A stretch of 64,000 bases of DNA, taken from Streptomyces ruber. GTDB lineage: Bacteria > Actinomycetota > Actinomycetes > Streptomycetales > Streptomycetaceae. Numbering within the stretch: position 1 is the first letter of the stretch; every line of letters begins with the position of its first letter. Below are positions 590 through 31,432 of the stretch, one piece after another. Under the pieces are notes generated by a model. It made no database searches. It was not told where the DNA came from and was given only the letters and a program-made list of their open reading frames with translations. Location: the NCBI RefSeq assembly GCF_014648075.1, contig NZ_BMQK01000012.1, positions 1-64,000 of the forward strand, written 5' to 3'. The translations under genes and the position numbers were made by a program.

Positions 590-1130
590 CCCATTGTGGT
601 GAGGCGCCAGCGGTTCGTGAACCAGTCCACTTGGCACTGGCAGCCCGTGCGGCGGCGGATCCGCGAGCGGATGCTGCCGCTGATCCAGCCAGTGGCGGTG
701 GGCGATCGACGATGTGTCGGTGCCCGAGGACGGGACCATGTCCGTCGGCGTGCCCCGGCAGCACTGCGGCGCACTGGGCAGGCGGGCCAACTGCCAGGTC
801 GCGGTCAGCATCCACGCGGTCAGCGCGACGGCGTCGTGTCCGCTGCAGTGGCGGTTGTTCCTGCCCGAGGACTGGGCGGCGGATCCCGTCCGCCGGACCA
901 GGACCGGCGTCCCGCCAGGTCACCCACCGAGAGAAGTGGCGCCTCGCACTGGGCGCTCGACACCCTGGCCGACTGGGGCATGACCCCGCCGGTGATGGTG
1001 GCCGAAGCCGCCTGCGGCACCACTGCACCACTGCACCGCCGCGGCCGGCCCTGGACGAGCGCCGGCTCGCCTATGTGCTGGCCGTCCGCGCGGAGATGAC
1101 CGCCCACCCAGCACGCTCGGCCGCCGCGGC
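590..1130 (+). pseudogene. IS701-family transposase remnant (DDE), frameshifted
   Basis: Three frames must be joined to recover the protein. Frame 2 gives RFVNQSTWHWQPVRRRI and LPLIQP (about 610-690). Frame 3 gives DDVSVPEDGTMSVGV, where the first DDE aspartate lies, followed by GALGRRANCQVAVSIHAVS and a block ending near LFLPEDWAADPVRR (about 700-910). A frame-1 piece reads HREKWRLAL and ends LAYVLAVRAEMTAHP (about 930-1110). These blocks are in the order and spacing seen in Streptomyces IS701-type DDE transposases. At least two frameshifts and a missing C-terminal third show it is dead. No terminal inverted repeats were recognised. Confidence 0.85.
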
Positions 1131-2073: not shown

Positions 2074-2271
2074 ATGTCGCCCGTAGTCACCAAGGTGAAC
2101 GAGAACGCGCAGATCAACTCCCTTGCAATGCTGAGCAGCCACGCCAAGGAGGGGGAAGTCGTCGTCGGCGCCTGGCCGGCAGCAGTCATGGACGGAGTGA
2201 TGGGAGCGCTCGGGTGCGCCCCTGCCGTCGCTAACGAGGTCGGAAAGGCCGTCTACGCCGCAGTCGGCTGA
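2074..2271 (+). CDS. Candidate precursor peptide 1 of an SdpAB-like peptide system
   Basis: A 65-residue peptide starts at ATG 2074 after a strong GAGGAAGG ribosome site 5 bases away. Its N-terminal part is polar and leader-like (MSPVVTKVNENAQINSL). The C-terminal part is hydrophobic and small-residue rich, contains one Cys in ALGCAPAV, and ends AVYAAVG. The second peptide gene 105 bases downstream has the same layout: MSxxxxxVNExxxIxxL at the start, CxPAV in the core and a final VG. Paralogous leader-plus-core peptides ahead of membrane and hydrolase genes are what a secreted or processed peptide system looks like. I cannot match the peptide to a described RiPP or bacteriocin family, so function is inference. 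The similarity of the two peptides is directly visible. Confidence 0.72.
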   Translation: MSPVVTKVNENAQINSLAMLSSHAKEGEVVVGAWPAAVMDGVMGALGCAPAVANEVGKAVYAAVG

Positions 2272-2376
2272 CAGGCTCCGCCTCTCTAGTTCCGCAGTAC
2301 GTCCCTCCACATATGGAGACGACTGCTCTCGTACAGCGAAATCACTGTTAGCTAGCCAATTAGATGGAGGTGAAAC

Positions 2377-2550
2377 ATGTCTTCGATGCTTTCGGCTGTC
2401 AACGAAGATGAGCGGATCGCAGACCTGAACTTCGAAACCGCTCAGCCCGAGATGCTCGCCGATGAGGCTGTTCCTGTGCTCTGCACACCGGCGGTTCTCG
2501 TTGCGGGCATCAACGCGGCGAACGCGGTGCGCACCGCCCTCGTCGGCTGA
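2377..2550 (+). CDS. Candidate precursor peptide 2 of an SdpAB-like peptide system
   Basis: This 57-residue peptide starts at ATG 2377, six bases after a TGGAGGTG ribosome site. The leader (MSSMLSAVNEDERIADL) aligns without gaps to that of peptide 1. An acidic linker (ETAQPEMLADEA) is followed by a hydrophobic core beginning VPVLCTPAVLVAGIN and ending TALVG. Like peptide 1 it has a single Cys, in the shared CxPAV context. One Cys in each peptide would allow a mixed disulfide or a Cys-based modification; neither is proven. A strong hairpin at 2579-2615 separates it from the enzyme genes. That arrangement usually makes small precursor messages more abundant than downstream ones. Confidence 0.72.
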   Translation: MSSMLSAVNEDERIADLNFETAQPEMLADEAVPVLCTPAVLVAGINAANAVRTALVG

Positions 2551-2578
2551 TCAGCGGTTTTCGCATTGATCAAAGGTA

Positions 2579-2615
2579 CGCGGCCGCCAGGAGATGCGTA
2601 TCTCTGGCGGCCGCG
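2579..2615 (+). terminator. Hairpin between precursor genes and processing genes
   Basis: CGCGGCCGCCAG pairs with TGGCGGCCGCG, and the stem extends inward through GAGAT and ATCTC with one bulge. It lies 28 bases after the second peptide stop and 63 bases before the HTTM gene, with no run of T after it. It is most likely a partial terminator or attenuator that sets precursor-to-enzyme ratio. Confidence 0.65.
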
Positions 2616-2678
2616 TTCTCACGATTTTCGGCCATCAGTAAGGCGCCACGCCACTCTGACCATCGATATGGGTACGTC

Positions 2679-3572
2679 ATGGGAATGAAGCTCTGGATGC
2701 GCTCCGCCGTCAAAGGGATCCTCACACCTCCCCGTATATCTCGGGAGTCAGCGCTTACGCTCACTGAGCAAGGCAGCGCCTTGACACATATGATAAGCAG
2801 CCTAGAAGCCCTGGCGGCGGAAAGAGATCGCCAAGCCGGCGGTCTCAATGACTGGCGTATCACACGTCAGAACTACGCTACTTTGCCTCGTTCCGCTCGT
2901 CAGTTGCTTGATGCGCTGAGTCACCCTAGAAGCGTGCGAGCTATACATGGAGCACGCGTTCTGTGCGCTGCCTCTCTGTTGGTGCCAGGCACACATCGGA
3001 AAGTTAGGGCAACTGCCAATGGGATACTCGCGCTGACATCGGCAGTCGGGTACGTGAACCAGCGGTATGGAACGGATGGGACAGATCAAGTTACGTTTAT
3101 TACGCAGTCTGTCTCAACTATTGCAAGGATTGGCAACCGCAATCCGAGGCTGGTGGATGCCTGCCTGTGGTATATCGCATTGCAAGCCACACTGTCGTAT
3201 GCAATCTCTGGCATCGTCAAACTGCCGAGTGAGGGCTGGCGGTCCGGCGAGGCTCTCCCCGGAGTCCTGAGAACGGAGTCCTACGGCGATCCGACAGTTT
3301 ACAAATTGGCTCGGAAGCACCCAAGGCTGACGAAGACGGTAGCGCACGCTGTGCTTGTACTGGAATGTTCCTTCCCCATCGCCTTCGCTGCGAAGGGAGC
3401 ATTCGCACCATTGATGCTTGCCTGCACGGGATCCTTCCATCTGGTGAATGCCCGGGTGATGGGCCTGGGGAGGTTTGCGCTGGCCTTCCCCTCAATGTAC
3501 CCGGCGATTCTTTACGCCGCGCAGCGACAAGATGCTCGTATTCTTCAGCCAGGCGACAGGGGAATCAAATGA
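2679..3572 (+). CDS. HTTM-domain (SdpB-like) integral membrane protein
   Basis: The protein has 297 residues. The central and C-terminal parts are hydrophobic helices, for example around HAVLVLECSFPIAFAAKG. The best landmark is YAISGIVKLPSEGWRSGEAL (about 182-201). It matches the HTTM motif SGxxKL...WRxGxAL, seen in horizontally transferred transmembrane proteins related to vitamin K-dependent gamma-carboxylase. In Bacillus the HTTM protein SdpB works with SdpA to mature the SDP killing peptide. ATG 2679 is the start; its ribosome site is weak, so the level may depend on read-through from the peptide genes. The stop overlaps the next gene in ATGA. An HTTM-like membrane protein is well supported; the peptide-maturation role is inferred from its neighbours. 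Confidence 0.78.
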   Translation: MGMKLWMRSAVKGILTPPRISRESALTLTEQGSALTHMISSLEALAAERDRQAGGLNDWRITRQNYATLPRSARQLLDALSHPRSVRAIHGARVLCAASLLVPGTHRKVRATANGILALTSAVGYVNQRYGTDGTDQVTFITQSVSTIARIGNRNPRLVDACLWYIALQATLSYAISGIVKLPSEGWRSGEALPGVLRTESYGDPTVYKLARKHPRLTKTVAHAVLVLECSFPIAFAAKGAFAPLMLACTGSFHLVNARVMGLGRFALAFPSMYPAILYAAQRQDARILQPGDRGIK

Positions 3573-4564
3573 CGACACGGCACGACACCCTGCCGAAGGT
3601 CGCAGGTGCGATCCTGCTCAGCGCAGCTACACTTGGGATAACCGCACAGAAACGCCGTCACCGTCGCGTTCTTGAGGGCCGGGGGGACGAACTCTTCTTC
3701 CGCACGACGAGGGGCAGTGTTCTTTCTTACACATTCCGTGAAGCGTCAGCATCAAGGACCGCTCGGCCGACAGTCCTCGTTCTCGAGTCAGGTCTGCTGA
3801 CAACGGATACACACTGGTCCTGGTTCCGGCACCTTCTGGGTGATGACCACCCCATTCTTTCATACGACCGCGCAGGTTACGGACGCAGCGAATACGCCAG
3901 TAATACGCCGTTCGATCTTCGGTCCTCCGTACTGGACCTTGAGGAGCTGGTGCGGCACGTCTGTGGGGATCGTCCAATCGTTCTGGTCGGGCACTCGCTG
4001 GGCGGGTACCTCGCTATGCGGGCAACCGCGTCCATGGCAGATATTGCCCGAGGGCTCATCTTGCTTGATCCCACGCATCCAGGACAACTGCTGCGGTCCT
4101 CGGCTCAAAAGAACGGTGCGAGAAGCACGCATAACATCCTTAGTCTCATGGCTGAATCGGCTCGTCTCGGGCTGGGCCTTTTGCTTGCTGCACCTCCCTG
4201 GAGCACCGAACTTCCGCAAAAGGAAAGCAAACTTTATCTTGACCAGTTCCGAGACTGGAAGATGTGGGCGGCTGCAAAACGCGAATGGTCAGCCGCAGAG
4301 AAGGAATTCCTCGGTTTCGACGGAACCCTTCCGAAGGTGCCTGTCCCCACTCTTCTCATAGCCGCGGGTCACACCCACGCGACAGACAGGATAAGCAGCG
4401 ATCTGCACGAGGAGCTCGTCTCGGTAGCGCCCCTTGGCAGCGTCAAGGTGATCGCGGATGCCAAACACACTGAGCTTCTTGTCAAGCAGAAGACCGCTAC
4501 CCAGGCCGTTTCATATGCTCGCGAATTTCTGCACGAGATGGGAGAGGGTGAGCTGGAACGATGA
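3569..4564 (+). CDS. Membrane-anchored alpha/beta hydrolase of the peptide operon
   Basis: This 331-residue protein starts at ATG 3569, overlapping the HTTM stop, after a GGGGA ribosome site. Residues 10-26 (VAGAILLSAATLGITAQ) form a short hydrophobic segment, which suggests an N-terminal membrane anchor or uncleaved signal. The rest is an alpha/beta hydrolase fold. It has an HW motif after the first strand (THWSWFRHLL), YDRAGYGRSE, the nucleophile elbow GHSLGG (Ser near 145), an acid in the ISSD region and a catalytic His in DAKHTELL near 300. Tight coupling to the HTTM and SdpA-like genes suggests it acts on the same peptide, for example as protease, thioesterase or acyltransferase. Classical SDP operons of Bacillus lack this enzyme. 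Fold and catalytic residues are seen; the substrate is unknown. Confidence 0.8.
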   Translation: MTTRHDTLPKVAGAILLSAATLGITAQKRRHRRVLEGRGDELFFRTTRGSVLSYTFREASASRTARPTVLVLESGLLTTDTHWSWFRHLLGDDHPILSYDRAGYGRSEYASNTPFDLRSSVLDLEELVRHVCGDRPIVLVGHSLGGYLAMRATASMADIARGLILLDPTHPGQLLRSSAQKNGARSTHNILSLMAESARLGLGLLLAAPPWSTELPQKESKLYLDQFRDWKMWAAAKREWSAAEKEFLGFDGTLPKVPVPTLLIAAGHTHATDRISSDLHEELVSVAPLGSVKVIADAKHTELLVKQKTATQAVSYAREFLHEMGEGELER

Positions 4565-5139
4565 GGAAAGTGATCGAGCTGATACGCTCCAAGATGCCAA
4601 GTTCCTCCAGCTTGGCCGCGCCATCAGTGGAAGTAGCGCTGGCTGTGTGGCTGGTCGCTACGGCCCTCAGCCAGCATCCGAACAGATCCTTCGATGGCCT
4701 GCGAAGGTACGACCCGCTGGGCGTCATGATACCGAACTGGAGGTTCTTCGCGCCGACGCCGGCACAGCATGACTATCACCTCCTGTACCGGACGTTGTCT
4801 CATGACGGAGAGCAATCACAATGGGAGGCTGCATCAACGATAACTCCTCGAAGCTGGGCTCAGTCCATATGGTCTCCAGGCCGCCGGCAAGAGAAGGCAG
4901 TGTTCGATCTGTGTAGTGAGCTGGTCTCTATCGACGGGCACGGGAAGAACATAGTGGAAACTACTGCGTACAAATTGTTCAAGGGATTCGTGGCCCATAA
5001 GCTTGCAAATGCCGAGGGCGGCAACAGAGACATCAGAGGGTTCCAGTTCCTGATTGTGCGGTACAGCGGTCATGACGACTCCGAAGAACCTCTGTACTCC
5101 TTTGTTTCCCCTTTCATTCCCGCAGCACAGGTGGGATAG
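4561..5139 (+). CDS. SdpA-like protein of the peptide operon
   Basis: The 192-residue protein overlaps the hydrolase stop in ATGA. After about 20 residues comes a hydrophobic helix (VEVALAVWLVATALS), then a soluble domain with PNWRFFAPTPAQHDYHLLYR near residues 59-78. The P-x-W-x-FF-x-P-x-P motif is shared by SdpA and other partners of HTTM proteins. SdpA of Bacillus subtilis is of similar size and is needed with SdpB for SDP maturation. Overall similarity judged by eye is limited to this motif and to the gene order, so the name is a family hint, not proof. The stop at 5139 ends the coupled operon. Confidence 0.66.
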   Translation: MRKVIELIRSKMPSSSSLAAPSVEVALAVWLVATALSQHPNRSFDGLRRYDPLGVMIPNWRFFAPTPAQHDYHLLYRTLSHDGEQSQWEAASTITPRSWAQSIWSPGRRQEKAVFDLCSELVSIDGHGKNIVETTAYKLFKGFVAHKLANAEGGNRDIRGFQFLIVRYSGHDDSEEPLYSFVSPFIPAAQVG

Positions 5140-5249
5140 GCGTCCACAGGACATCGAAGCACCTGGGAAACGCGTCGGAAGGTATGCCTACATCTTCCCG
5201 CATGCAAGTGACCTGCTCGCGGGTGTGAGGAAGTCCCCGGACACACTGG

Positions 5250-5444
5250 ATGAGCCTGTTCAGGCCGGCCCTCGAAAAATACCTGGCGGCGGGCGCACAT
5301 GGTGTTGTATCGAGAGGTATTTCGGGAGAGCGGGCGGTCCAGGCGATTCACAGCGTTCACTCCGGCAATCGGTACGTTGATGCAGAGTGCTTCAGTGAAG
5401 CAATGAGCCGGGGACGCCTCGCACACCCTAAGAGGAGTGAATAA
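5250..5444 (+). pseudogene. Response-regulator receiver remnant (NarL/FixJ type)
   Basis: The frame gives 64 residues with the second half of a receiver domain: a hydrophobic alpha-4 segment, then YLAAGAHGVVSRGISGERAV and AIHSVHSGNRYVDAE. This matches the alpha4-beta5-alpha5 end of NarL-type regulators (AGAxGxVxK...AIxxVxxGxRYxD), with Arg replacing the usual switch Lys. The phosphorylated Asp half is missing upstream, where an in-frame stop lies before 5229. No LuxR helix-turn-helix follows before the stop. It is probably the relic of a regulator that once controlled the peptide operon. Confidence 0.6.
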
Positions 5445-5864
5445 TTGTCGCTGGTGAGCCGGGACACGGACACTTATTCGGCACTTCCTCCGGCTCGCCA
5501 GTGCTTCGTTGCATGGTCACCGTTCTGAAGATACCCGCCACCGCGGCGTTGTCACCTGCGATATCGCTCGTACTGCGAGCGGGGACCGATATGTGCCATG
5601 CCCACCCCGTGACCGGAAGAGCATCCTGCGTATGTATCATTCACCCCTTCGCAACCCAACCTGTTCCAGCAACACGCTGACCGATCCTCTCAACAAGGCA
5701 GCAGAAGGCGCGCGAAATGTTCCTCAGGGCGCAGCCAACACCGTTTCAGCTCGTCGAGCGCCTCGAAACGATCTTGCGTACACGGTGTCGAACGTCGAGC
5801 TCGCCGTGGACTTGAGGGCCGCCCGTCTACAGCATTCGACGCCCACGCCCGCCGGGACCGCCAT
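5445..5864. other. Intergenic, no confident gene
   Basis: A plus-strand frame from ATG 5514 could encode 55 residues (MVTVLKIPATAALSPAISLV at its start) with three Cys, but it has no convincing ribosome site. A minus-strand frame over 5428-5640 is equally open. I cannot assign either. The A/T-rich character fades here and the composition returns to the high-GC norm. Confidence 0.35.
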
Positions 5865-7313
5865 ATGACCGACGCCGCCATCGTCGGCACCGGCCCCAAC
5901 GGCTTGGCCGCTGCCGTCACACTCGCCCGCGCCGGTCTTACCGTCACCCTGTACGAGAAGGGCAACACCATCGGCGGAGGCCTGCGCACCACCAGCTACT
6001 TCGACACCGACATCGTCCACGACGTCTGCTCAGCCGTGCACCCCATGGCGGCCGCATCCCCCTTCTTCCGCGCCTTCGACCTGGAGGCACGCGGGGTCCG
6101 ACTGCACCAGCCGGACATCCCCTACGCTCACCCGCTGCCGCACGGCCGGACGGCCGCCGTCTGGCGAGACCTCTCCTGCACCGCCGAGCGCCTCGGCGCC
6201 GATGGCCCCCGCTGGACCCGGCTGATGGGCCCGCTGATCGCACACACCCGGGGCGTGGCCGACCTGCTTCTGTCGAATCAGCGTGCACTGCCTCGCGACC
6301 CGGCCGCTGCCTTCCGGTTGGCCCCCCGCGTCCTGGCCCACGCCACCCGCCGCACGCCTTTCACCACCGAGGAGGCCCGCGCCCTGCTCACCGGGGTCGC
6401 CGCGCACAGCGTCGGCAAGCTGCCCTCCCTGGCGGGCACCGGGGTCGGCCTTTTCCTCGCACACACCGCCCACTCCACCGGCTGGCCGCTGCCCGCAGGC
6501 GGCAGCGGCAGTATCGCGGAGGCGATGGCCGACGACATCCGCGCGTACGGCGGCATCTTCCATACCGGCCACCGCGTCACCGACCTCGCCGAACTGGACG
6601 GCGCCCCGATCGTCCTGCTCGACGTGGGGCCCAAGGAGTTCTTGAACATCGCCGGCGACCGGCTCCCCGCTCGCTACCGTCGCGCCCTCGTTCGCTACCG
6701 ATACGGCCCGGGCGCCGCCAAGGCCGACTTCCTGGTCGACGGCCCCATTCCCTGGGCGGACCCGCTGACCGGCCGGGCCGGCACCGTTCATCTCGGCGGC
6801 ACATACGCCGAGATGGTGCGGCAGGAGAACGCCACCGTCGCCGGGCACGCCACCGACCGGCCCTTCGTCCTGGTCGTGGACCCCGCAGTCACCGACCCCG
6901 CGCGGGCCGTGGGCGGCAAGCGCCCGATCTGGGCATATGCGCATGTGCCCAACGGCGACACGCGGGACCCCGTCGAACTGATCACCCGGCGCATCGAGGA
7001 GTACGCCCCTGGATTCACCGACACCATACTCGCCTCCCGGGGCACCACCGCCGTCAATCACGAGGAGTACAACCCGAACTACGTCGGCGGTGACATCTCG
7101 GCGGGCGCCTTGACCCTGCGCCAGGTCCTTGCTCGTCCCACCCTCCGCGCTGATCCGTACACCACGCCCCTCAGCGGGGTTTACCTGTGCTCGGCGGCCA
7201 CTCCGCCCGGCCCGTCGGTGCACGGCATGTGCGGCCACCTGGCCGCCCTGTCGGCCCTCCGTCGGCATCACGGCATCCGCACGTCTCCGACCCTCAGGCC
7301 CGCGCCGGCGTAG
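5865..7313 (+). CDS. FAD-dependent oxidoreductase, phytoene-dehydrogenase-like
   Basis: This is a 482-residue flavoprotein. It opens with a Rossmann dinucleotide-binding motif (AAIVGTGPNGLAAAVTLARA), then an acidic strand end in LYEKG and the GGGLRT flavin motif, all within residues 1-45. The C-terminal end has the second FAD motif (GVYLCSAATPPGPSVHGMCG). This arrangement is typical of CrtI/CrtN-like amine-oxidase-fold enzymes, which oxidise hydrophobic substrates. The internal substrate region gives no specific clue. It has no enzyme partner nearby; two small secreted proteins follow after about 285 bases. Start ATG 5865 is fixed by the Rossmann motif and has no obvious Shine-Dalgarno sequence. 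Confidence 0.9.
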   Translation: MTDAAIVGTGPNGLAAAVTLARAGLTVTLYEKGNTIGGGLRTTSYFDTDIVHDVCSAVHPMAAASPFFRAFDLEARGVRLHQPDIPYAHPLPHGRTAAVWRDLSCTAERLGADGPRWTRLMGPLIAHTRGVADLLLSNQRALPRDPAAAFRLAPRVLAHATRRTPFTTEEARALLTGVAAHSVGKLPSLAGTGVGLFLAHTAHSTGWPLPAGGSGSIAEAMADDIRAYGGIFHTGHRVTDLAELDGAPIVLLDVGPKEFLNIAGDRLPARYRRALVRYRYGPGAAKADFLVDGPIPWADPLTGRAGTVHLGGTYAEMVRQENATVAGHATDRPFVLVVDPAVTDPARAVGGKRPIWAYAHVPNGDTRDPVELITRRIEEYAPGFTDTILASRGTTAVNHEEYNPNYVGGDISAGALTLRQVLARPTLRADPYTTPLSGVYLCSAATPPGPSVHGMCGHLAALSALRRHHGIRTSPTLRPAPA

Positions 7314-7597
7314 ACAGCCCGACACCGCCCCCGCTCCCGCGGCGGTTGTCCGGTACCTCCTGCCACCACGCTCCCGGACGACCGCACCAGGCAGCATCGA
7401 GGACTGCGGCAGGGAGGTTTCCCACCAGCTGACCCGATACGCCACCGGCCGCAGCGGCCGGTCCCCTCCACACGCGCAAGGCCCTGCGCGCCTTGCTGGA
7501 GCTGCGTACGGCGCCGCTCGTCTCGGACGAGCGTACGGGCAACTGCCCCGCCAACACAGCTCATCACGATTCGAGCATCCGAGGAGTGAAGAACACC

Positions 7598-8041
7598 ATG
7601 GCCCGCAAGACGCTTCAGATCCTTCCCCGAGTGGCCGTTCTGGCCTCGTGCGCCACTCTTCTCCTTACCTTCTCCCCCGCTGCGACCGCCGCGGAGGCAA
7701 GCGCAACGGCACAGCAGGCAGAGAATGCCTGGACGATGACGCACGGCACAGCCACAGCAACCGGCACCGCCTCCCGGGTGAACGGCGAGGCCTTGTACAC
7801 CGACCTCGTCGCTCACGGCGAGCTCACCAACACCGGCTCCGAGTGCTACTCGGTGTGGGTGGGCATCAAGCAGGACCTCACCCCTGCGTTCCCCTTCAAG
7901 CGGGCAACCCTGTGCGGCGAGGGAACCGAGTCGGTCAACCTCTCCGTACCGAACCTCATGCCAACCACGACCGTCTACGGCTACCTGTGCCGCGGTGAGC
8001 AGAACACCGAGGACTGCAGCGCCCCGTTGCGTCTGGTGTAA
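7598..8041 (+). CDS. Secreted four-cysteine protein A, unknown function
   Basis: This 147-residue protein starts at ATG 7598 after GAGGAG. Residues 1-31 form a Sec signal peptide: basic start MARKT, hydrophobic core, and AxA-type cleavage near TAAEA. The mature part begins near NAWTMTHGTATATG and has four Cys, in SECYSVWVG, ATLCGEG, YLCRGE and EDCSAP. The next gene encodes a paralogue with the same four Cys contexts and the same (N)xWTxTH opening. Two disulfides and a small extracellular beta-rich domain are likely. I do not recognise the family. Confidence 0.82.
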   Translation: MARKTLQILPRVAVLASCATLLLTFSPAATAAEASATAQQAENAWTMTHGTATATGTASRVNGEALYTDLVAHGELTNTGSECYSVWVGIKQDLTPAFPFKRATLCGEGTESVNLSVPNLMPTTTVYGYLCRGEQNTEDCSAPLRLV

Positions 8042-8119
8042 GAGGTCGTTCACTCCCGTTGTTCCATCCCGTGATGCGCGACATCACGGCACACCAGAGC
8101 AACAGAAAGGTGACGAACA

Positions 8120-8545
8120 GTGATCGCACGTTGGTTGGCAACATCTGCCAGTGCCGTGGTTTTGGCTGCTACGGTCGCCACGAATCCGGCCACTGCACAT
8201 GCGGACACAGCGCCCGTGAACACATGGACGGTCACACATCAAACCGCAGTAGCAGCAGGAGAATCGTGGTGGGAGAATCCCACCCACTCCTCCACCCTCG
8301 CACTTGAGGGAACTCTGTCCAATTCAAGCGACGCTTGCTACTCACTGTGGACAAGAGGCAGCCGAGACTCCCAGCCCTTCCCGCCGAATATCGGCACCAA
8401 GAGGGCCGAAATATGCGGCTCGGGGGACGTGGACGTCAGCATCAGGCAAGCAACCCTGCCCAACACCTGGTGGCAGATCACCGTATGCTCCGGTACGCTG
8501 AATATGGACGATTGCGCGCAATGGAGGGACATCGACCTCAACTGA
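8120..8545 (+). CDS. Secreted four-cysteine protein B, paralogue of A
   Basis: The start is GTG 8120 after a GAAAGGTG-like ribosome site; the product has 141 residues. A signal peptide (about 1-29, ending ATAHADT) precedes a mature domain opening NTWTVTHQTAVAAG. Its four Cys are in DACYSLWTRG, AEICGSG, ITVCSG and DDCAQW, each aligning with protein A. The tandem arrangement 78 bases apart points to gene duplication and probable co-transcription. Function is unknown; pairing of two secreted variants may mean heterodimer formation or divergence of targets. Confidence 0.82.
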   Translation: MIARWLATSASAVVLAATVATNPATAHADTAPVNTWTVTHQTAVAAGESWWENPTHSSTLALEGTLSNSSDACYSLWTRGSRDSQPFPPNIGTKRAEICGSGDVDVSIRQATLPNTWWQITVCSGTLNMDDCAQWRDIDLN

Positions 8546-8877
8546 CCGGGGCGAATGCTGCGCGCGGGAACAGCCGAGTCATAACTCGTCGCCTGTCCCG
8601 ACTATCCTGCCGTGTGGCGAGAGAACCAAGCCTTTGCGGTAGGTTTGGGGTTTCGCACACGGGGAGGTTGACCGTTGTTCACGGCCCCTGTGCGCGGTGA
8701 GGAGCAATGGGGACTGCTGCACCCCGCTCCGTCCAGGCGTGTATCCGGAAGTCCTGCGCGTATCGGAGAGCGACGCCGTGCGGGGAGCCAGGCGTTGACA
8801 TGGGCCTCGCCGGGTGTTCGATCGAAGCGCCAGCATCGTCCGCCCACCCGGCGAGTCTGTGGTCAGTGTGCGCCCGC
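8546..8877. other. Intergenic, no gene recognised
   Basis: No frame with a ribosome site or family signature is visible. The stretch ends where the IS630-like remnant begins. Confidence 0.4.
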
Positions 8878-9085
8878 CCTCCGTATATCCCAATGCCGTC
8901 GGCTGCCGAACGTGAGCGATTACGCAGCCTGTTGCGCGGCCAGGGCCGGACGGTGGTGCGGGCGATGATGGCGCTGCTGTCACTGCATGGCGCGTCACCT
9001 GCACAGATCGCCGTGCTGGTGGAGTACGACCCGGCCACCGTGCGCCGCTGGATCGGCCGCTTCGACGTCGTACCGCGTGCCGCCG
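8878..9085 (+). pseudogene. IS630-family transposase N-terminal remnant
   Basis: About 65 residues are readable: SAAERERLRSLLRGQGRTVV, then ALLSLHGASPAQIAVLVEYD and PATVRRWIGRFD. This is the helix-turn-helix opening of IS630-type transposases (AEIAxxLgyhpsTVRRWixRf). The frame then runs straight into antisense RHS-type sequence, so the catalytic DDE domain is gone. Confidence 0.7.
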
Positions 9086-9400
9086 GTGGTGATGCCGGCG
9101 AGCTGGCTGTGGCCGGTCCAGGTCTCGTTCGTGCGGGCGGTGGTGGTGGTGCGGCCGCCGGCGGTCTCGGTGCCGAGCCTGTCGTACGACCAGGGGGTCG
9201 CCGAGGCGATCCGGCCAGTCAGCTGGCCGGCGTCGTTGCAGGTGAACTCGGCGCTGCCCGTGGCGTCGTTACCCGTCTTGGTGTAGTCGTAGGTGAGGTC
9301 GGTGAGCGTCGTTCCGCCCGACGTCGTCCCGATCGCCTGCGGGCGGCCGTTGTCGTCGATGCGCCGCGGTGTCGAGCCCCTTCGACGTCGACTCGAAGAC
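9086..9400 (-). pseudogene. RHS/YD-repeat protein fragment
   Basis: Read on the minus strand, one open frame without a start gives DDNGRPQAIGTTSGGTTLTD, LTYDYTKTGNDATGSAEFTC and NDAGQLTGRIASA. These resemble YD (RHS) repeats, which build the shell of polymorphic toxins. Both ends are cut and neither a toxin domain nor a secretion signal is present. It is a relic from a larger toxin-type gene. Confidence 0.6.
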
Positions 9401-9496
9401 GATGTTCCCTCACATCAGGGCCCGGAGTACGAGAGGCCAGGTGCCGATCCGGGTGGCCCTGGAGGCTCTTGGGACTCGGCTGTCCACCGGCCTACG

Positions 9497-9928
9497 ATGA
9501 GCGGCATGCCGCCCGATGTCTCCCCGTCCTCCGTCTGGCCGGTCCTGCACTACGACGACACCAGGGCGGCGCTGCGCTTCCTGGTCGACGTGCTGGGCTT
9601 CGAGCAGGCGGTCGCCGCGCCGGACGAGCACGGCGGGATCGGGCATGGGGAGCTTCGGTGGCCCGGCGGTGGGGCGCTGGTGTTCGGTTCGACCCGGCAC
9701 ACGGACAGCGTGCACGGGCGGATGCGGGCGGGCGCCAGCGCGGTCTACGTGGTGAGCGACGACGTGGACGCGGTGCACCGGCGGGTGGTCGACGCCGGCG
9801 GCGAGGTTCTCGAAGCGCCGCATGAGACGCGGTTCGGGTCGGGGGCGGCGGCGTACGTGTGCACGGTGCGCGACCCGGAGGGCAACCTCTGGACCTTCGG
9901 CACCTACCGCGGTCCTTCACCGGAGTAG
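9497..9928 (+). CDS. VOC (glyoxalase/bleomycin-resistance fold) protein
   Basis: The product has 143 residues and a single VOC module: WPVLHYDDTRAALRFLVDVL at the start, a central strand block around GELRWPGGGALVFGS, and TVRDPEGNLWTFGTY at the end. The last motif carries the conserved DPEGN turn and a probable metal-binding position. Proteins of this YCII/VOC subgroup are usually small-molecule binding or resistance proteins of unknown ligand. ATG 9497 is chosen; ATG 9506 is an alternative. A hairpin follows the stop. Confidence 0.82.
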   Translation: MSGMPPDVSPSSVWPVLHYDDTRAALRFLVDVLGFEQAVAAPDEHGGIGHGELRWPGGGALVFGSTRHTDSVHGRMRAGASAVYVVSDDVDAVHRRVVDAGGEVLEAPHETRFGSGAAAYVCTVRDPEGNLWTFGTYRGPSPE

Positions 9929-9946
9929 CGAGCCAGGACGAGACGG

Positions 9947-9977
9947 GAGGACCCCGGCCGGTTGGGCCGGGATCCTC
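9947..9977. terminator. Bidirectional hairpin terminator
   Basis: GAGGACCCCGGCC and GGCCGGGATCCTC pair with one mismatch across a short loop. It lies between the convergent VOC gene and the SulP remnant. Confidence 0.75.
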
Positions 9978-9998
9978 TTGGTGTTGCCGCGCTGGGGG

Positions 9999-10322
9999 TC
10001 AGTGGCTGCCGGCGAGTTCGCCGGTGAGCTCGCCGTGCAGGTCGGCGCCGGGGTCGTTCAGGTCGGTGATCTCCACCGTCTTGCCCCGCTGGGCGTACTC
10101 GGTCTCGATCGCGTCCAGGGCGGCCGCGGAGGAGGCGTCCCAGACGTGTGCGGCGGACAGGTCGATGACGGCCTTCTCCGGATCACCCGCGTAGTCGAAC
10201 TGGCCGACGAGGTCGTTGGAGGAGGCGAAGAACAGCTCGCCGGTGACCCGGTGGACGACGGTCTTGCCGTCGGGGCCGACCACGGCGGTGACCTCGGCGA
10301 GGTGGACGACGCACGTCCGCAC
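9999..10322 (-). pseudogene. SulP transporter, C-terminal STAS domain remnant
   Basis: The readable 107 residues correspond to the cytoplasmic STAS end of a SulP-family anion transporter: VVHRVTGELFFASSNDLV, then VIDLSAAHVWDASSAAALDA and YAQRGKTVEITDLN. The DxSxxxxxDxSxxxAL pattern is the STAS phospho-site region. All membrane helices are missing; upstream the sequence becomes a 21-bp tandem repeat. This is a deletion remnant, not a free anti-anti-sigma factor, because the surrounding residues follow the SulP subgroup. Confidence 0.75.
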
Positions 10323-10414
10323 CGGTCAGTGGCATGGAGCTCGTGCGGTCGCCCACCGAGTCGCTGAGCACCGGCAGACGGACGGTCGCGGCAAGGTCCG
10401 CGACCGCGTCCGAT

Positions 10415-10498
10415 GCGTCTTCGGCTGCGTCCGGCGCGTTCTCGGCTGCGTCCGGCGCGTTCTCGGCCGCGTCCGGCGCGTTCTCGGCCGCGTCCGAC
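10415..10498. repeat. 21-bp tandem repeat, four copies
   Basis: Four copies of a unit of the form GCGTTCTCGGCYGCGTCCGGC run head to tail. On the minus strand they are in frame as DAAENAP repeats. The repeat sits at the break between the STAS fragment and a decayed dioxygenase gene and may mark a rearrangement or slippage site. Confidence 0.85.
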
Positions 10499-10516
10499 GT
10501 CACGATGTGTCCTTCT

Positions 10517-11228
10517 TCAGACGCCGGCAGGGGCGTGGAGCGGGCGCCGCACGCTGTCTCGGTGGTCGTCGGGGCCGAGGGCGGCGCGCTCGGTGCGTCG
10601 GCTGCGTGGTGTGCGGATCTTCAGACGCCTGAAGTGCCTCCCGGTGCTGCCGGCGGCCAGGGAGGTGCGTCCGTGCAGGGTCCGCCTGTTGTCCAGGCGC
10701 AGTAGATCCCCGGGGCCCAGTGGGACGGTGGACACTACTGAGGCGCACCCGAGGGCGTCCGCGAAGGCCCGCAGGGCAGCCCGGTGCGCATCGTCGAGGG
10801 TCTGCGGATGCAGCCGCAGCCCGTCGCGTGGATGGCTGTCGTGGGAGCGGACGGTCAGGTCGTCGTCGCTGCGGTCCAGGACGGGGCCGAAAAGGGGTGG
10901 GCGGTCACCCTTGACGAACGGACAGCAGCCGTCCTGGAGCAGCGCCGTCGCGCCGGGGGCACTCTCGTCGAGCCGTGCCACCACGTCGCGGACCCGAACA
11001 ACCAGTGACCGTCCTTCGCCGTCAGGTGCCGCCCGGACGCATGCCGGACCCACATACGAGTGCGGATCGCGGTCGAACACCGTGTCGGTGTGGGGGGATC
11101 GGTGCCGTGTCCGGTCTCGCCGCGTCGTACGCGGCGATCCAGGCCAGGCCGTTCGCGCGCAGTCGTTCCCGGTGGGGCCGCCGCAGTCGCGTCCACATCC
11201 GTTCGAAAGTTTCGAACGTCGCGCACAT
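10517..11228 (-). pseudogene. TauD/TfdA-type Fe(II)/2-oxoglutarate dioxygenase, frameshifted
   Basis: The N-terminal piece (MCATFETFERMW, then ANGLAWIAAYDAA) is in one frame. After a shift near 11090 a second frame gives DRDPHSYVGP, VVRVRDVVARLD, FALVKGDRPP-like sequence, then ALRAFADALGC and LRLDNRRTLHGRT. LDNRRxxHGR is the conserved end of the TauD fold, with the second iron-binding His and the 2-oxoglutarate-binding Arg. The first iron motif (HxD) is not intact. Frameshift and missing motif suggest an inactive gene. Clavaminate-synthase-like hydroxylases of amino acids are the nearest relatives I recognise. Confidence 0.65.
11201..11217. promoter_or_regulatory. CGAAA-N-TTTCG palindrome upstream of the xylanase
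   Basis: GTTCGAAA and TTTCGAAC flank a single G in perfect symmetry. Similar CGAA-type sequences recur at 11341-11391 (CCGAAAG, GTCGAAAG, and the palindrome TTTTCGAAAA at 11382-11391) directly before the xylanase gene. CGAA...TTCG elements are known operator-like repeats ahead of Streptomyces xylanase genes, so xylan-dependent control of the next gene is plausible. Confidence 0.5.
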
Positions 11229-11556
11229 GCTTGCGTTACGTTCCTCCCATACCTCATTCCATCCCTCACGACGGTTCGCGTGACAGGTAGTTTGACCAGC
11301 GCTGCTGTACTCGCCAAGACCTCATCCGGTGAAGGGAATATTTCCGAAAGACTGTCGAAAGTGTTGACAGGCTCATGGCGCTTTTCGAAAACTGTGGCCA
11401 CCGAACGACAGGAGACCGTTGTTCCCCTTGCGTCATGTGACCGGGGATGGCGGCCGGTCGTTGCGGCACGACGACGGGCGACCCCCGCCGTGTTCCATGC
11501 AAGGCCGCGGGCAGCACAAGCCGCCCGACCCCCACCAGCCTTCATCGGGAGGACGC

Positions 11557-12282
11557 ATGCAGCAGGACGGCACGCAGCAGGACCAGATCCAGCAGAACCC
11601 CGCTCCCTTCAGCGGCTTGAGCCGACGAGGCTTCCTCGGCGGCGCCGGCACCGTCGCGCTCGCCACCGCGTCCGGACTGCTGCTGCCCGGCACCGCCCAC
11701 GCCGCCACCACCATCACCACCAACCAGACCGGCTACGACGGCATGTACTACTCGTTCTGGACCGACGGCGGCGGCTCCGTCTCCATGACACTCAACGGCG
11801 GCGGCAGTTACAGCACCCGGTGGACCAACTGCGGCAACTTCGTCGCCGGCAAGGGCTGGAACACCGGCGGGCGCAGGACGGTCCGCTACACCGGCTACTT
11901 CAACCCGTCGGGCAACGGCTACGGCTGCCTCTACGGCTGGACGTCGAACCCGCTGGTGGAGTACTACATCGTCGACAACTGGGGCAGCTACCGGCCCACC
12001 GGCGAGCACAGGGGCACCGTCTACAGCGACGGCGGCACGTACGACATCTACAAGACGACGCGGTACAACGCCCCCTCCGTCGAGGGCACCCGCACCTTCG
12101 ACCAGTACTGGAGCGTCCGGCAGTCGAAGGTGACCAGCGGCTCCGGCACCATCACCACAGGCAACCACTTCGACGCCTGGGCGCGCGCGGGCATGAACCT
12201 GGGCCAGTTCAGGTACTACATGATCATGGCCACCGAGGGTTACCAGAGCAGCGGAAGCTCGAACATCACGGTCAGCGGCTGA
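11557..12282 (+). CDS. Secreted GH11 endo-1,4-beta-xylanase
   Basis: The enzyme hydrolyses xylan outside the cell. The 241-residue product starts at ATG 11557 after GGGAGG. It carries a twin-arginine signal peptide (SRRGFLGG, then a hydrophobic core ending GTAHA near residue 48). The remaining roughly 190 residues are one GH11 jelly-roll: [37 protein letters not shown] and [19 protein letters not shown], where the Glu of VEYYIVD is the nucleophile. [13 protein letters not shown] holds the acid/base Glu. Length and motifs are complete, with no carbohydrate-binding module. The nearby CGAAA palindromes suggest regulated expression. Function is secure. Confidence 0.97.
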
Positions 12283-12808: not shown

Positions 12809-13537
12809 CTACAGCTGCTCGAAGTGGAAGGAGCGGATGAAGCAGTCCCGTGGTTGGCCGATCGCGAAAAGGACACAGTCGAGGACGGATTGGGCGGTCA
12901 GTGGGTCGTCCGCGGTCCGGGAGGCTTGGTCCCAGGTGGAGTGGAGCGGATCGCCGTCCGAGAAGTCCGGTGGGTAGAGCGAGATGACTCGGATGCCCTC
13001 GGGACGGAGCCGATGAGAGAGGACGTCGGCGAAGCCGGCCTGGGCGGCCTTGGCCGCGTAGAACGCGGGATGCGCTGAAGAGCGGTGGTTCCGGGCTTCC
13101 GCGGCTGAGGAGATCAGGTTGACCACGTCTGCGCCCTCGGAAGCGCGCAGCAGGGGCAGGAAGTGCTTGACGGTCAGCAGGGTGCCGGTGGCTCCGGAAG
13201 CGACGGTGTCGGTGATCGACTCGTCGTCGGCGTCCCACAGGTCCGGGCCTTCCAGGTAGCGGGCGCCATTGTTGATCAGCACATCCACCTTGTCGGCGTG
13301 AGCGGCGACCCCCTCCGCGAAGCCCCGTACGGTGGCTGGGGCAGCCAGATCACAGGCGAACGCATCCACTCGCGCCCCGCTGTCGGCCGCCACCTCGTCG
13401 GCCACCTTTTGAGCGGCAGCCAGAGTGCGAGCGGATACGAACACGCGCGCACCCATCCGGCCCGCGTGCAACGCCAACGCCCTCCCGAACCCACGCCCGG
13501 CCCCGGTGACCACCACTGTCTTCCTGACGAGATCCAT
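12809..13537 (-). CDS. Short-chain dehydrogenase/reductase
   Basis: This is a 242-residue classical SDR. The cofactor motif VVVTGAGRGFGRALALHAGR is at residues 8-27 (TGxxxGxG), INNGARY stands for the NNAG position, a catalytic Ser is in NLISSAAE, and Tyr-Lys are in FYAAKAAQAG (YxxxK). Start ATG 13537 follows a good AAGGAGGTG ribosome site, although the frame stays open further upstream. The substrate is unknown. It stands alone, facing the xylanase, with no partner suggesting a pathway. Confidence 0.92.
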   Translation of the reverse strand: MDLVRKTVVVTGAGRGFGRALALHAGRMGARVFVSARTLAAAQKVADEVAADSGARVDAFACDLAAPATVRGFAEGVAAHADKVDVLINNGARYLEGPDLWDADDESITDTVASGATGTLLTVKHFLPLLRASEGADVVNLISSAAEARNHRSSAHPAFYAAKAAQAGFADVLSHRLRPEGIRVISLYPPDFSDGDPLHSTWDQASRTADDPLTAQSVLDCVLFAIGQPRDCFIRSFHFEQL

Positions 13538-14052
13538 ACGCGCACCTCCTTCGACCTTCTCGTATTGCTCGCGGTGAGCGTAACTGTGGCGTTGAACGCG
13601 GCGTGGCTCGGCCAGCCGGCCCAGTGCCCACTGACGAGTGGCCGAGGCGGAACGGTCGGCGTGGCTCGCGCACGGTGGTTCCCGCAGGCGGGCGATTCGA
13701 GCGCCCGAGCGCCCGAAGTACCACTTCCACGGCTTCTCGCTCCTCGCTTCTCGCCGATGAGGAGGCAGTGCGGTACCCGTCATCCGAGTCAGCCCACTTC
13801 CGTCCGCTTGCGTGCCTCTTGGCCATCCGTTCCCGGTCTGCTGGGACAGTCGGCCAGCAGCGCGGTGCCGTCGGTGTGGCGGGCGAAGAGCTGTGGCACC
13901 CAGGAGCGCACCGGCCCGCGATGGTTGCGCCGCACCGGCCGCCCGGCCGCGGCTCGGCGCTCGGCTTCCGCGATCTCACCAGCTACATCGCCCGAGCACT
14001 TCCCGAGGCTGGCGGGATCAGATCCCAACTACACCCTTGACCACACCCTTGA
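13538..14052. other. Intergenic, probable gene debris
   Basis: A minus-strand piece near 13850-14000 (AGEIAEAERRAAAGRPVRRN and VRSWVPQLFARH) looks protein-like and may be part of a decayed transposase or regulator. I cannot place it in a family. Confidence 0.3.
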
Positions 14053-29394: not shown

Positions 29395-31188
29395 TCAGGA
29401 CCTCTGCCGTGCGTGCTGCAGTGTGTCCACGAGCCGCAGCTCGACGGGGGTGCCCTGGTTCGTCACTCGGCCGTGCTCCATGACCAGTACGCGATCGGCC
29501 CGGTGGACGGTGGAGAGACGGTGAGTGATGATCAGGCAGGTGCGCCGGGCGAGGAAGGGCTGAAGGGCTTCCATGACCGCTCGCTCCGTGGACGCGTCCA
29601 GGTGCGAGGTGGCCTCGTCGAGAACGACGACCTCGGGCGCCTTGAGAAGCAGGCGCGCGATCGCCAGCCGTTGGCGTTCGCCGCCCGACAGCCGCACCCC
29701 CCGGTCGCCGAGCACGGTGTCGAGGCCGTTCGGCAGCCGTTCGACCACATCCCATATCCGGGCGGTCCGGCAGGCGTCGGCGATCTCCTCGTCACCGGCG
29801 TGCGGCCGGGCCAGCAGCAGGTTCTCGCGCACCGTGGTGTGGAACAGGAAGGTGTCCTGGGCCACCACCCCCACGGTGCGCCGCAGTGACGCCAGATCCG
29901 CCCGGCGCACGTCCAGCCCGCCCACCTCGACCTTTCCGGCGTCGACGTCCCAGCATCTGGTGAGCAGGCGTGCGAGGGTCGACTTGCCGGCCCCGGACGT
30001 ACCGACGATGCCGAGGGTCGTTCCCGCCGGTACCTCGAAGGTCACCGCCTCAAGGGCCCGGCGCGACGTCCGCCTCGGCCGGGTGGGGTCATGGCCCGCT
30101 TCTCCCGGCTGCGGGCCGAGGGAGGCCGGTCCCGCGGCGTGGTCCTGCGGATAGCTGAAGGCGACTTCGGTGAAGGCCACCGACGTGCCGGGTACGGGCT
30201 GCGCGTCCTCGGGCTGCCGGACACCGGGCGAGGCGCACATCACCTCTCGGACCCGCTCGAAGCTGACGGTGCCCGCCACCAGTTCCATCCTGCAGGCGGG
30301 CAGGGCCGCGAGCGGACCGTAGACACGGGTGATCAGGGCCACCGAGGCGACCATGGTGCCGAGCGACAGCGCGTCCCCCGCGACCAGCAGGGCCGCGACC
30401 ACGTAGACGCCCGAGGTGGCCAGGGAGAGCAGTACGGTCAGACAGGCGCCGAGCCGGGCGTCGAGGAACGCACCGCGTACCGCGGCGTCACGTACGCGAC
30501 GCACACGCCGGCGGAACTCGTCCGTCTCCCGGTCGGCGGCGCCGTGGAGACGGATCGCTTCCGCGCCGCCCTGGCTCAACCGCTCCGCGGCCATCGAGTC
30601 CAGGTCGGCGACGGCGTCCAGCCGGCGCTGGGTGAGTTCGCGCAGCGCGGCGCCGAAGCGCGTCGTGATCACGTACAGCACCGGGGTCAGGCACAGGAGC
30701 GCGGCGGCGATGCGCCAGTCCAGTACGAGGACCGCTGTCCCCGCCACGACGAGGGTGACCAGTGCGGAAGTCGCGGTCACCAGGGTGCGCGCGATCAGGT
30801 CGCGCACCCCCTGTACGTCTCCGTGCAGACGGGAGACGATGGCTCCGGTCCGGGACGCGGCGAAGAACGCGGCCGACTGGCTCTGCAGATGCTCGAAGAC
30901 GTCCACCCTCATCCGGGCGGTCACGTCTTCGGCCAGCCCGGCGGTCGCCCAGCGTTCGGCCAGCGTCGAACAGGCCGCCACCACCCCCACCGTCAGCAGG
31001 GCCCCGCCGAGAAACCAGACGCGCCGGGTGTCGCCCGGTACGGCGCCCTCGTCGATGAGCCGCTGTGTGAGGAACGCCGGCCCGACGGCCAGTCCCGCGT
31101 TGACCGTGATCAGCACGATCACGCCGGCGATGCGCCGGCGGAAGGCGAAGAGGAAGGTGCTGAGTCGGGCGTAGTCGCCACGTGGCAT
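29395..31188 (-). CDS. ABC transporter (fused permease-ATPase), lanthipeptide exporter
   Basis: This 597-residue half-transporter starts at ATG 31188. A six-helix type-1 exporter domain covers about 1-310 and an ATPase follows. Walker A is GTSGAGKST (near 400), the Q-loop VAQDTFLF, the signature LSGGERQRL (near 500), Walker B VVVLDEATSHLD and the switch His in ITHRLSTV. There is no N-terminal C39 peptidase, so leader removal must be done by another protease, as is usual for class III lanthipeptides. It follows the precursor gene by 115 bases, across a strong hairpin that probably lowers its expression relative to the precursor. Export of the modified peptide is the likely job. Confidence 0.9.
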   Translation of the reverse strand: MPRGDYARLSTFLFAFRRRIAGVIVLITVNAGLAVGPAFLTQRLIDEGAVPGDTRRVWFLGGALLTVGVVAACSTLAERWATAGLAEDVTARMRVDVFEHLQSQSAAFFAASRTGAIVSRLHGDVQGVRDLIARTLVTATSALVTLVVAGTAVLVLDWRIAAALLCLTPVLYVITTRFGAALRELTQRRLDAVADLDSMAAERLSQGGAEAIRLHGAADRETDEFRRRVRRVRDAAVRGAFLDARLGACLTVLLSLATSGVYVVAALLVAGDALSLGTMVASVALITRVYGPLAALPACRMELVAGTVSFERVREVMCASPGVRQPEDAQPVPGTSVAFTEVAFSYPQDHAAGPASLGPQPGEAGHDPTRPRRTSRRALEAVTFEVPAGTTLGIVGTSGAGKSTLARLLTRCWDVDAGKVEVGGLDVRRADLASLRRTVGVVAQDTFLFHTTVRENLLLARPHAGDEEIADACRTARIWDVVERLPNGLDTVLGDRGVRLSGGERQRLAIARLLLKAPEVVVLDEATSHLDASTERAVMEALQPFLARRTCLIITHRLSTVHRADRVLVMEHGRVTNQGTPVELRLVDTLQHARQRS

Positions 31189-31228
31189 GAGCCGTCCCTG
31201 TCGTGGAGTACGGGTGTGTCCGCCGGAG

Positions 31229-31262
31229 GGCGGGTGGCCCGGGTACGTCCGGGCCACCCGCC
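31229..31262 (-). terminator. Attenuator hairpin between precursor and exporter genes
   Basis: A perfect 14-base stem (GGCGGGTGGCCCGG with CCGGGCCACCCGCC) closes a 6-base loop. It lies downstream of the precursor on the minus strand and has no T-tract. Such partial terminators commonly raise precursor message over transporter message. Confidence 0.8.
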
Positions 31263-31303
31263 TTTCCCGTCCGTCATCGGACGGGGCCGGTGCCGGGCGA
31301 GGT

Positions 31304-31432
31304 TCAGCCGCAGGCGAAGAGCGAGATGTCGGACGGCCGGTTGTTGCCGCACGACCACCAGCTGACTTCACTCGCCATGGTGGTGGCCGGCTCGTCGTGT
31401 GCTTCCATGCCCTGCAGGTCGTACATGCTCAT
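31304..31432 (-). CDS. Class III lanthipeptide precursor, labyrinthopeptin-like
   Basis: ATG 31432, after AAGGAGAG, gives a 42-residue peptide. The leader has the class III recognition motif in MSMYDLQGMEAHDEP (LxLQ-like YDLQ). The core contains two Ser-x2-Ser-x3-Cys units, SEVSWWSC and SDISLFAC, separated by GNNRP and followed by one Gly. Each unit can form a labionin or lanthionine ring as in SapB and labyrinthopeptins. SDISLFAC resembles the second ring of labyrinthopeptin A2, but the adjacent Cys used there for a disulfide is replaced by Gly. No disulfide is therefore possible between ring ends. It lies 100 bases after the LanKC gene. Assignment is strong; ring type is inference. Confidence 0.93.
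   Translation of the reverse strand: MSMYDLQGMEAHDEPATTMASEVSWWSCGNNRPSDISLFACG

What the first reader, a model, noticed from the sequence alone, without database searches (positions are those of the whole stretch)
2074..5139. Undescribed SdpAB-like peptide operon with twin precursors and a hydrolase
Two paralogous short peptides, each with a strong ribosome site, precede an HTTM (SdpB-like) membrane protein, a membrane-anchored alpha/beta hydrolase and an SdpA-like protein; the last three overlap by ATGA. In Bacillus, SdpA and SdpB mature the SDP killing peptide, but there is no hydrolase in that operon and only one precursor. No SdpI/SdpR immunity pair is visible here. The A/T-richer composition than the flanking DNA suggests transfer. 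Seen: gene order, motifs, overlaps. Inferred: peptide maturation and secretion.
Basis: partly seen in the sequence, partly recalled or inferred. Interest (0 to 1): 0.88.

Follow-up and report, generated by a model that had tools for sequence, protein, structure and literature searches.

The report
Linaridin peptide gene cluster in Streptomyces
These genes are a member of an already known family of small modified bacterial peptides (the linaridins), and their membrane enzyme resembles both the maturation protein of a Bacillus killing peptide and the human vitamin K carboxylase, which suggests a testable chemistry for the whole family.

Summary
In detail: two short ORFs, an HTTM membrane protein, an α/β hydrolase and a small single-helix protein lie in one operon-like run, with ATGA overlaps and low GC. 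The identification changes: this is a linaridin-type RiPP cluster (LinA1, LinA2, LinG, LinE, LinL). LinL homologues occur in 59 of 392 genus genomes, the own one included. In 35 of 61 loci G and E share one ORF. 43 of 51 loci with the hydrolase have a PxxxTP precursor, against 0 of 10 without. LinA2 has the motif (PVLCTP); LinA1 does not. Kinship to SdpB is real for the HTTM protein (hhalign 97.7%, E 1.6e-12) but not shown for the 'SdpA-like' protein. The window copy lacks the methyltransferase and transporter of most relatives and may be reduced or decaying. Its two cores hold one Thr and no Ser, so epimerisation seems likelier than dehydration (inference). The LinG model matches vitamin K-dependent γ-carboxylase (Z 15.1), and its invariant Lys181 falls, by way of SdpB, on that enzyme's base Lys218. 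This suggests quinol-driven Cα deprotonation for linaridins and SDP alike: bold and untested.

The parts
2074..2271 (+). LinA1, candidate precursor, 65 aa; no PxxxTP motif; no Ser/Thr after residue 22
   Evidence: (clade profile E 0.013); position and ribosome site
2377..2550 (+). LinA2, precursor, 57 aa; motif PVLCTP at 2473-2490; predicted 19-residue core at 2491-2547
   Evidence: profile E 7.2e-9
2578..2616 (+). strong hairpin (17 bp) between the precursors and the enzyme genes; possible attenuator (inference)
   Evidence: 2551-2678 has z-score -3.14, 1 of 200 shuffles folds as well
2679..3572 (+). LinG: HTTM membrane protein, GGCX-like fold, invariant Lys181
3569..4564 (+). LinE: alpha/beta hydrolase with Ser143 (GHSLGG) and His300; one ORF with LinG in 35 of 61 loci
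4561..5139 (+). LinL: N-terminal helix (residues 19-37) plus alpha/beta domain, DUF5819-related
5262..5414 (+). remnant similar to part of a response regulator, in the place where relatives have methyltransferase and transporter genes
   Evidence: tblastn E 9.6e-10 to an L039 gene; no Pfam hit for 5250-5441
5865..7313 (+). LinO (my name): NAD(P)/FAD-dependent oxidoreductase, found near LinL in 36 of 61 loci
7493..8041 (+). small protein S1, secreted by the look of its N-terminus (probable true start about 7598)
   Evidence: no Pfam family
8120..8545 (+). small protein S2, same family as S1 by similarity to the same relatives
   Evidence: no Pfam family
714..980 (+). transposase remnant (DDE_5) upstream of the cluster
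   Evidence: E 5.2e-23
8707..9825 (+). probable transposase remnant with a helix-turn-helix start, downstream of the cluster
   Evidence: HTH_29 E 9.4e-6, below the curated cut-off

Best explanation
This is a linaridin-type RiPP cluster. LinA2, and probably LinA1, are precursors whose leader is read by a membrane complex of LinG, LinE and LinL. The complex modifies the hydrophobic core; the leader is removed at PVLCTP, possibly by the serine hydrolase LinE; and an ABC transporter encoded elsewhere would export the peptide. Because the two cores hold almost no Ser or Thr (one Thr in LinA2, none after residue 22 in LinA1), the main modification is more likely L-to-D epimerisation at C-alpha than dehydration. 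The copy here appears horizontally acquired and reduced: methyltransferase and transporter genes are absent beside it, so a finished product is uncertain. Shown: gene content, homology, motif, constraint on precursors in relatives. Inferred: complex formation, cleavage by LinE, epimerisation, export, transfer.
For: LinL homologues in 59 of 392 genus genomes, own one included. Of 61 loci (60 fetched and the window), 61 have the HTTM gene (two of them fragments), 51 the hydrolase (35 in one ORF with HTTM), 37 a methyltransferase, 44 an ABC transporter, 36 the oxidoreductase. 43 of 51 hydrolase-bearing loci carry a PxxxTP precursor by one uniform rule, 23 of them two or more, and 0 of 10 loci without hydrolase do (Fisher p 5e-7, but most of those ten form related branches). 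L086, L087 and L089 carry precursors ending STICLVC or STICLIC, which I recognise from memory as cypemycin/grisemycin type. PMC9927463 (passages) describes LinL, PxxxTP, HTTM and hydrolase genes in linaridin clusters. PMC10373908 (passages) reports several D-residues in type A linaridins and grmL as a potential epimerase gene. Pooled cores of 51 distinct precursors are 29% Ala, 16% Gly, 15% Val, 6% Thr.
Against: LinA1 lacks PxxxTP and matches relatives only weakly. Methyltransferase and transporter genes are missing beside the operon and transposase remnants lie near, so the copy may be decaying. Eight of 51 hydrolase loci had no PxxxTP precursor by the uniform rule, among them L034, the window's neighbour in the tree. 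Against epimerisation as the main step: the known linaridin corynaridin has all seven Thr and its Ser dehydrated, related cores average 2.8 Ser+Thr and only 2 of 51 have none, so dehydration may be the common reaction. No product of this clade is known to me.
Confidence: 0.8

Rival explanations
1. A member of the SDP (sporulation-delaying protein) kind: SdpA/SdpB-like proteins mature an otherwise unmodified or disulfide-bonded killing peptide.
For: LinG and SdpB are homologous; SdpA-SdpB genes exist in Streptomyces and other actinobacteria, and the SdpC cores found beside many of them are also rich in Ala, Val and Gly.
Against: None of 43 LinL relatives matches an SdpA model and the profile match is not significant. 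SdpC-like ORFs found by similarity were 171-316 aa (24 of 30 loci), unlike these 57-65 aa peptides. PxxxTP and the hydrolase are linaridin traits.
Confidence: 0.08
2. A decayed linaridin cluster with no product.
For: No methyltransferase or transporter beside it, a response-regulator-like remnant in the gap, a transposase remnant upstream and a probable one downstream, no PxxxTP in LinA1.
Against: All five ORFs are intact with ATGA overlaps and ribosome sites. Columns invariant in the LinG, LinE and LinL alignments include the window copy. One other locus, L032, has A-A-G-E-L with no M, T or O gene in its 12 kb, in a genome that holds a fuller cluster at L033.
Confidence: 0.3

Closest known systems
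Linaridins (cypemycin, grisemycin, legonaridin, corynaridin)
   Same: PxxxTP precursor, HTTM protein (LinG), alpha/beta hydrolase (LinE) or both in one ORF (LinH arrangement, name recalled), LinL; in most relatives also methyltransferase and ABC transporter
   Different: Ser/Thr-poor window cores; two or more precursors in 23 of 51 hydrolase loci; FAD oxidoreductase in 36 of 61 loci; the window copy lacks methyltransferase and transporter. I did not check whether published linaridin surveys already list this clade
SDP system (SdpABC-SdpIR)
   Same: HTTM protein homologous to SdpB; adjacent small partner protein; hydrophobic small-residue core
   Different: No SdpC-type precursor by NCBIfam, partner not demonstrably SdpA, extra hydrolase. 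SdpI was not searched for by profile; none is apparent by eye beside the operon
Vitamin K-dependent gamma-carboxylase (GGCX)
   Same: Fold of the membrane domain (Z 15.1 over 248 residues); Lys218 position kept by way of SdpB
   Different: Only the membrane-domain part aligns (GGCX residues 32-356); substrate cores are poor in Glu (2%); a sequence search with the LinG profile did not reach GGCX

Membership tests
Linaridin | LinL (CypL) homologue | tested here: met
   Same family by profile as the LinL of loci L086, L087, L089; that those loci are cypemycin/grisemycin type is my recall of the precursor sequences
Linaridin | HTTM protein and alpha/beta hydrolase, separate or fused | tested here: met
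   gene roles from PMC9927463 passages. HTTM in the window protein alone is below the Pfam cut-off
Linaridin | precursor with PxxxTP before the core | tested here: met
   LinA2: PVLCTP; not met for LinA1
Linaridin | dehydrated Thr (Dhb) in the product | not testable with these tools
   One Thr in the LinA2 core, none in that of LinA1; needs mass spectrometry
Linaridin | accessory genes: methyltransferase and ABC transporter | tested here: not met
   Best methyltransferase hit in the 64 kb window E 0.71; best transporter hit lies beside a RamC-like gene; no remnant in 5101-5900. Corynaridin also lacks the methyltransferase, so these are not strictly required
Linaridin | decarboxylase (type A) or short-chain oxidoreductase (type B) | not tested
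   not searched by profile
SDP system | SdpB-family protein | tested here: inconclusive
   Window protein no hit at E up to 1; 11 of 41 relatives hit TIGR04033, best 1.8e-6; hhalign 97.7%: homologous, but the own-genome search found nothing over the cut-off
SDP system | SdpA-family protein | tested here: not met
   profile comparison E 0.061
SDP system | SdpC-type precursor | tested here: not met
   No NCBIfam hit for the two peptides at E up to 1; 57 and 65 aa against 171-316 aa for the SdpC-like ORFs found
GGCX-type enzyme | fold of the membrane domain | tested here: met
   Top 9 Foldseek rows (best E 1.4e-3; none under 0.001) and top 14 VIA-align rows are GGCX
GGCX-type enzyme | catalytic Lys218 | tested here: met
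   Lys181 kept in 60 of 60 LinG with a residue there, 1 gap; aligned to SdpB Lys179, which HMMER aligns to the second Lys of GGCX VKKL. Indirect: LinG itself was not aligned to GGCX residue by residue
GGCX-type enzyme | quinol-dependent carboxylation | not testable with these tools
   needs enzymology

The most novel reading that the evidence does not exclude
LinG of linaridins and SdpB of SDP systems are quinol-dependent carbanion-forming membrane enzymes related to the vitamin K carboxylase: oxidation of menaquinol makes a strong base that removes the C-alpha proton of peptide residues, giving D-residues on reprotonation or Dhb by loss of the Thr hydroxyl. It would explain both linaridin modifications with one chemistry, and predicts mass-silent D-residues in the Bacillus SDP peptide and D-residue-rich, Dhb-poor peptides from this Streptomyces clade. 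Against it: a review (PMC10880069, passage) counts cypemycin among RiPPs dehydrated by kinase and lyase enzymes. I lowered the probability from 0.22 to 0.2 when adding that.
Probability: 0.2. Interest if true: 0.88.

Novelty: new member of a known kind. Interest (0 to 1): 0.5.

Why it matters
As a locus it adds one member, possibly reduced, to a RiPP class with 561 reported clusters (PMC9927463 citing an earlier survey). Its wider value is that it ties three things together: linaridin maturation, SDP maturation and the GGCX fold. PMC9927463 says that the exact mechanism of the linaridin HTTM and hydrolase proteins remains unclear; if LinG works by quinol-driven Cα deprotonation, that chemistry becomes directly testable, and the chirality of the well-studied SDP toxin should be examined.

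Tried and rejected
The search for related loci with the HTTM protein found no relatives; the genome search did. A paper search for SdpA, SdpB, HTTM and hydrolase returned 8 papers, half of them on unrelated Caulobacter or division proteins. That LinL is SdpA was tested and not supported. The LinL model (pLDDT 82.7, pTM 0.65) found no solved fold with E of 0.001 or better. The LinG profile found no convincing PDB sequence (7 matches, best E 0.91), so the GGCX link rests on fold and on the SdpB profile. A mosaic origin was considered: the oxidoreductase is 74% identical to that of the S. globosus cluster while G, E and L are 32-44%. But among the further loci printed with a match (second table, 8 loci) the oxidoreductase is at 60% or more in 7, so this is not decisive. 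Methyltransferase or transporter remnants in 5101-5900: only chance-level matches. The T-like hit at 29422-30354 lies in an ABC gene beside a RamC-like lanthipeptide synthetase and is not counted. LinE in 100 relatives: own genome plus 4 at 35-37% identity.

Literature limits: two key linaridin papers (Georgiou 2020, Xue 2023) are not held; I saw only their titles in reference lists. In the held library one paper contains both HTTM and RiPP, the corynaridin paper. The searches showed me no paper proposing a GGCX-like mechanism for linaridins or D-residues in SDP; I saw listings (30 of 35), and most subscription papers are not held.

Rows dropped: of 66 non-own LinL places the four weakest were not fetched; 62 places lie in 60 regions. 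Alignments A1, A2 and A3 hold 43, 41 and 40 sequences against 63, 63 and 56 family hits; near-identical copies and the ten loci without hydrolase were left out (LinG residues of all 61 loci were checked). One search kept 53 of 69 precursor candidates after hand-written filters and removal of near-copies; two of the 53 have no motif (LinA1, and one false ORF from L053). A first precursor count (42 of 51) used a position rule unsuited to the ten loci without hydrolase and missed L073; one search repeats it with one rule for all loci.
Full report
What is there. The window is G000:C12:1-64000 of a 7.9 Mb genome. The genus is Streptomyces: the 'same genus' hit G311:C2:2524098 coincides in contig length and position with plasmid NZ_CP081497.1 of Streptomyces sp. 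BHT-5-2. All five ORFs of the finding are open frames, with ATGA overlaps at 3569 and 4561 and purine-rich ribosome sites. Pfam: weak HTTM (21.5 bits, cut-off 27.7), clear α/β hydrolase (E 7.8e-21), weak DUF5819 (20 bits, cut-off 27.1); no family for the peptides and no Sdp model. GC of the enzyme genes is 57.5% against 69.3% in the flanks, lower than in any of the other 60 loci (64-76%).

Relatives. The LinL-like protein has matches in 59 of 392 genus genomes, own one included, and as an alignment in 39 of 394 genomes of the class, 17 of them strong (E below 1e-20) and 22 weak. Sixty regions were fetched. With the window that makes 61 loci: HTTM in 61 (two fragments), hydrolase in 51, both in a single ORF in 35, methyltransferase in 37, ABC transporter in 44, FAD oxidoreductase in 36, small secreted-looking protein S in 7. 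The usual order is A-A-(G-E)-L-M-T-O, with variants. The Streptomyces globosus plasmid NZ_CP030864 shows a complete cluster with three precursors and S, several genes overlapping. By one uniform rule, PxxxTP precursors lie in 43 of 51 loci with hydrolase (23 with two or more) and in 0 of 10 without. That pattern would fit LinE acting at PxxxTP, but it is confounded by kinship of the ten loci.

Identity. PxxxTP is the cleavage motif of linaridins, and the corynaridin cluster has LinL, an HTTM protein and an α/β hydrolase (PMC9927463, passages read). Loci L086, L087 and L089 of this same family carry precursors that I recognise from memory as cypemycin/grisemycin type; L072, L073, L075 and L077 have the split order E-L-A-G that I take, from memory, to be legonaridin-like. 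The LinL tree puts the window beside L034 (support 87/84) in a weakly supported group (80/51) with L032, L033 and L035. LinA2 fits the precursor profile at E 7.2e-9; LinA1 fits only the clade profile, at 0.013. In relatives, precursor pairs show pN/pS below 1 in 66 of 69 comparisons, 2 above, 1 undefined (uncorrected, non-independent).

State of the window copy. Methyltransferase and transporter are missing next to the operon. The gap holds a response-regulator-like remnant; a transposase remnant lies upstream and a probable one downstream. The oxidoreductase (5865-7313) and two S proteins remain. A strong hairpin lies between LinA2 and LinG. I read this as an acquired, reduced cluster; whether it still makes a product is open.

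What the enzymes may do. Of 51 distinct cores with the motif, 2 have no Ser or Thr and 9 have one; the mean is 2.8, and pooled composition is 29% Ala, 16% Gly, 15% Val, 6% Thr. The LinA2 core has one Thr; LinA1 has no Ser or Thr after residue 22. Type A linaridins contain several D-residues, and grmL is needed for grisemycin, potentially as an epimerase gene (PMC10373908, passages read). Epimerisation therefore fits the window's cores better than dehydration. On the other side, corynaridin has all its seven Thr and one Ser dehydrated, one paper says dehydration is thought to be catalysed by LinH or LinL (PMC7794033, passage), and a review lists cypemycin among RiPPs dehydrated by kinases and lyases (PMC10880069, passage).

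The GGCX link. LinG was modelled well (pLDDT 90.9, pTM 0.86). Its best solved matches are GGCX: Foldseek top 9 rows, prob 1.00, best E 1.4e-3 (none below 0.001), TM up to 0.61; VIA-align Z 15.1, rmsd 5.3, 248 aligned, top 14 rows. The tool warns that helical models without a clear match typically reach Z 14; the first non-GGCX row here has Z 11.0. LinG and SdpB profiles align at 97.7%, E 1.6e-12, placing LinG Lys181 on SdpB Lys179. The SdpB profile finds GGCX at E 1.1e-5, all 8 sequences listed being GGCX, and aligns that Lys to the second Lys of VKKL, residue 218 by the offset between constructs. [quoted passage not shown] Lys181 is kept in 60 of 60 LinG sequences with a residue there. From this I infer, but have not shown, a quinol-dependent Cα deprotonation.

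Against the Sdp reading of LinL. Of 43 LinL relatives scanned, none hit an SdpA model and 37 hit DUF5819 at E up to 1. All 24 true SdpA proteins scanned hit the SdpA family and none hit DUF5819. The profile comparison is not significant, although its alignment holds a shared W-x-F-F stretch. In the window's own genome a DUF5819 gene overlaps an HTTM gene, so HTTM plus a small partner may be a recurrent pair, of which SdpB-SdpA and LinG-LinL would be two instances (inference).

Verdict. The GGCX-like mechanism is the most novel reading that the evidence does not exclude.

Noticed in passing
window 29395-34124 (minus strand): RamC/AmfT-like class III lanthipeptide synthetase (RamC_N E 8.7e-75) next to an ABC transporter gene; the end of the ORF 31304-31975 (minus) looks, from memory, like a SapB/AmfS precursor.
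   Followed up: partly
L074, L078, L082, L083, L088, L091: LinL-HTTM pairs without hydrolase and without PxxxTP precursors; upstream short ORFs end in stretches like E-L-x-x-A-R-R-x-x-L, perhaps a second precursor class recognised at its C-terminus.
   Followed up: no
L127 (G000:C22:36000-46000), 3044-4162 and 4120-5427: DUF5819 and HTTM genes overlap in the window's own genome, near genes that look like phenylacetate degradation: another HTTM plus partner pair with no precursor noticed.
   Followed up: partly
L111, L112 and L128-L156: SdpA genes in Streptomyces, Nonomuraea, Micromonospora, Plantactinospora, Rothia, Curtobacterium and Microbacterium; SdpB follows in 29 of 30 loci tested and an SdpC-like ORF was found in 24 of 30, many with Ala/Val/Gly-rich cores.
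   Followed up: partly
window 7493-8041 and 8120-8545: Two tandem secreted-looking proteins of a family found near LinL in 7 of 61 loci; function unknown, possibly immunity.
   Followed up: no
L095 (Tsukamurella plasmid) 7562-11637: Genes annotated alcohol dehydrogenase family, proline racemase family and SDR follow the linaridin-like genes.
   Followed up: no
window 12809-13783 (minus strand): ORF that looks by eye like a short-chain dehydrogenase, about 7.7 kb downstream of linL on the other strand; not tested as part of the cluster.
   Followed up: no
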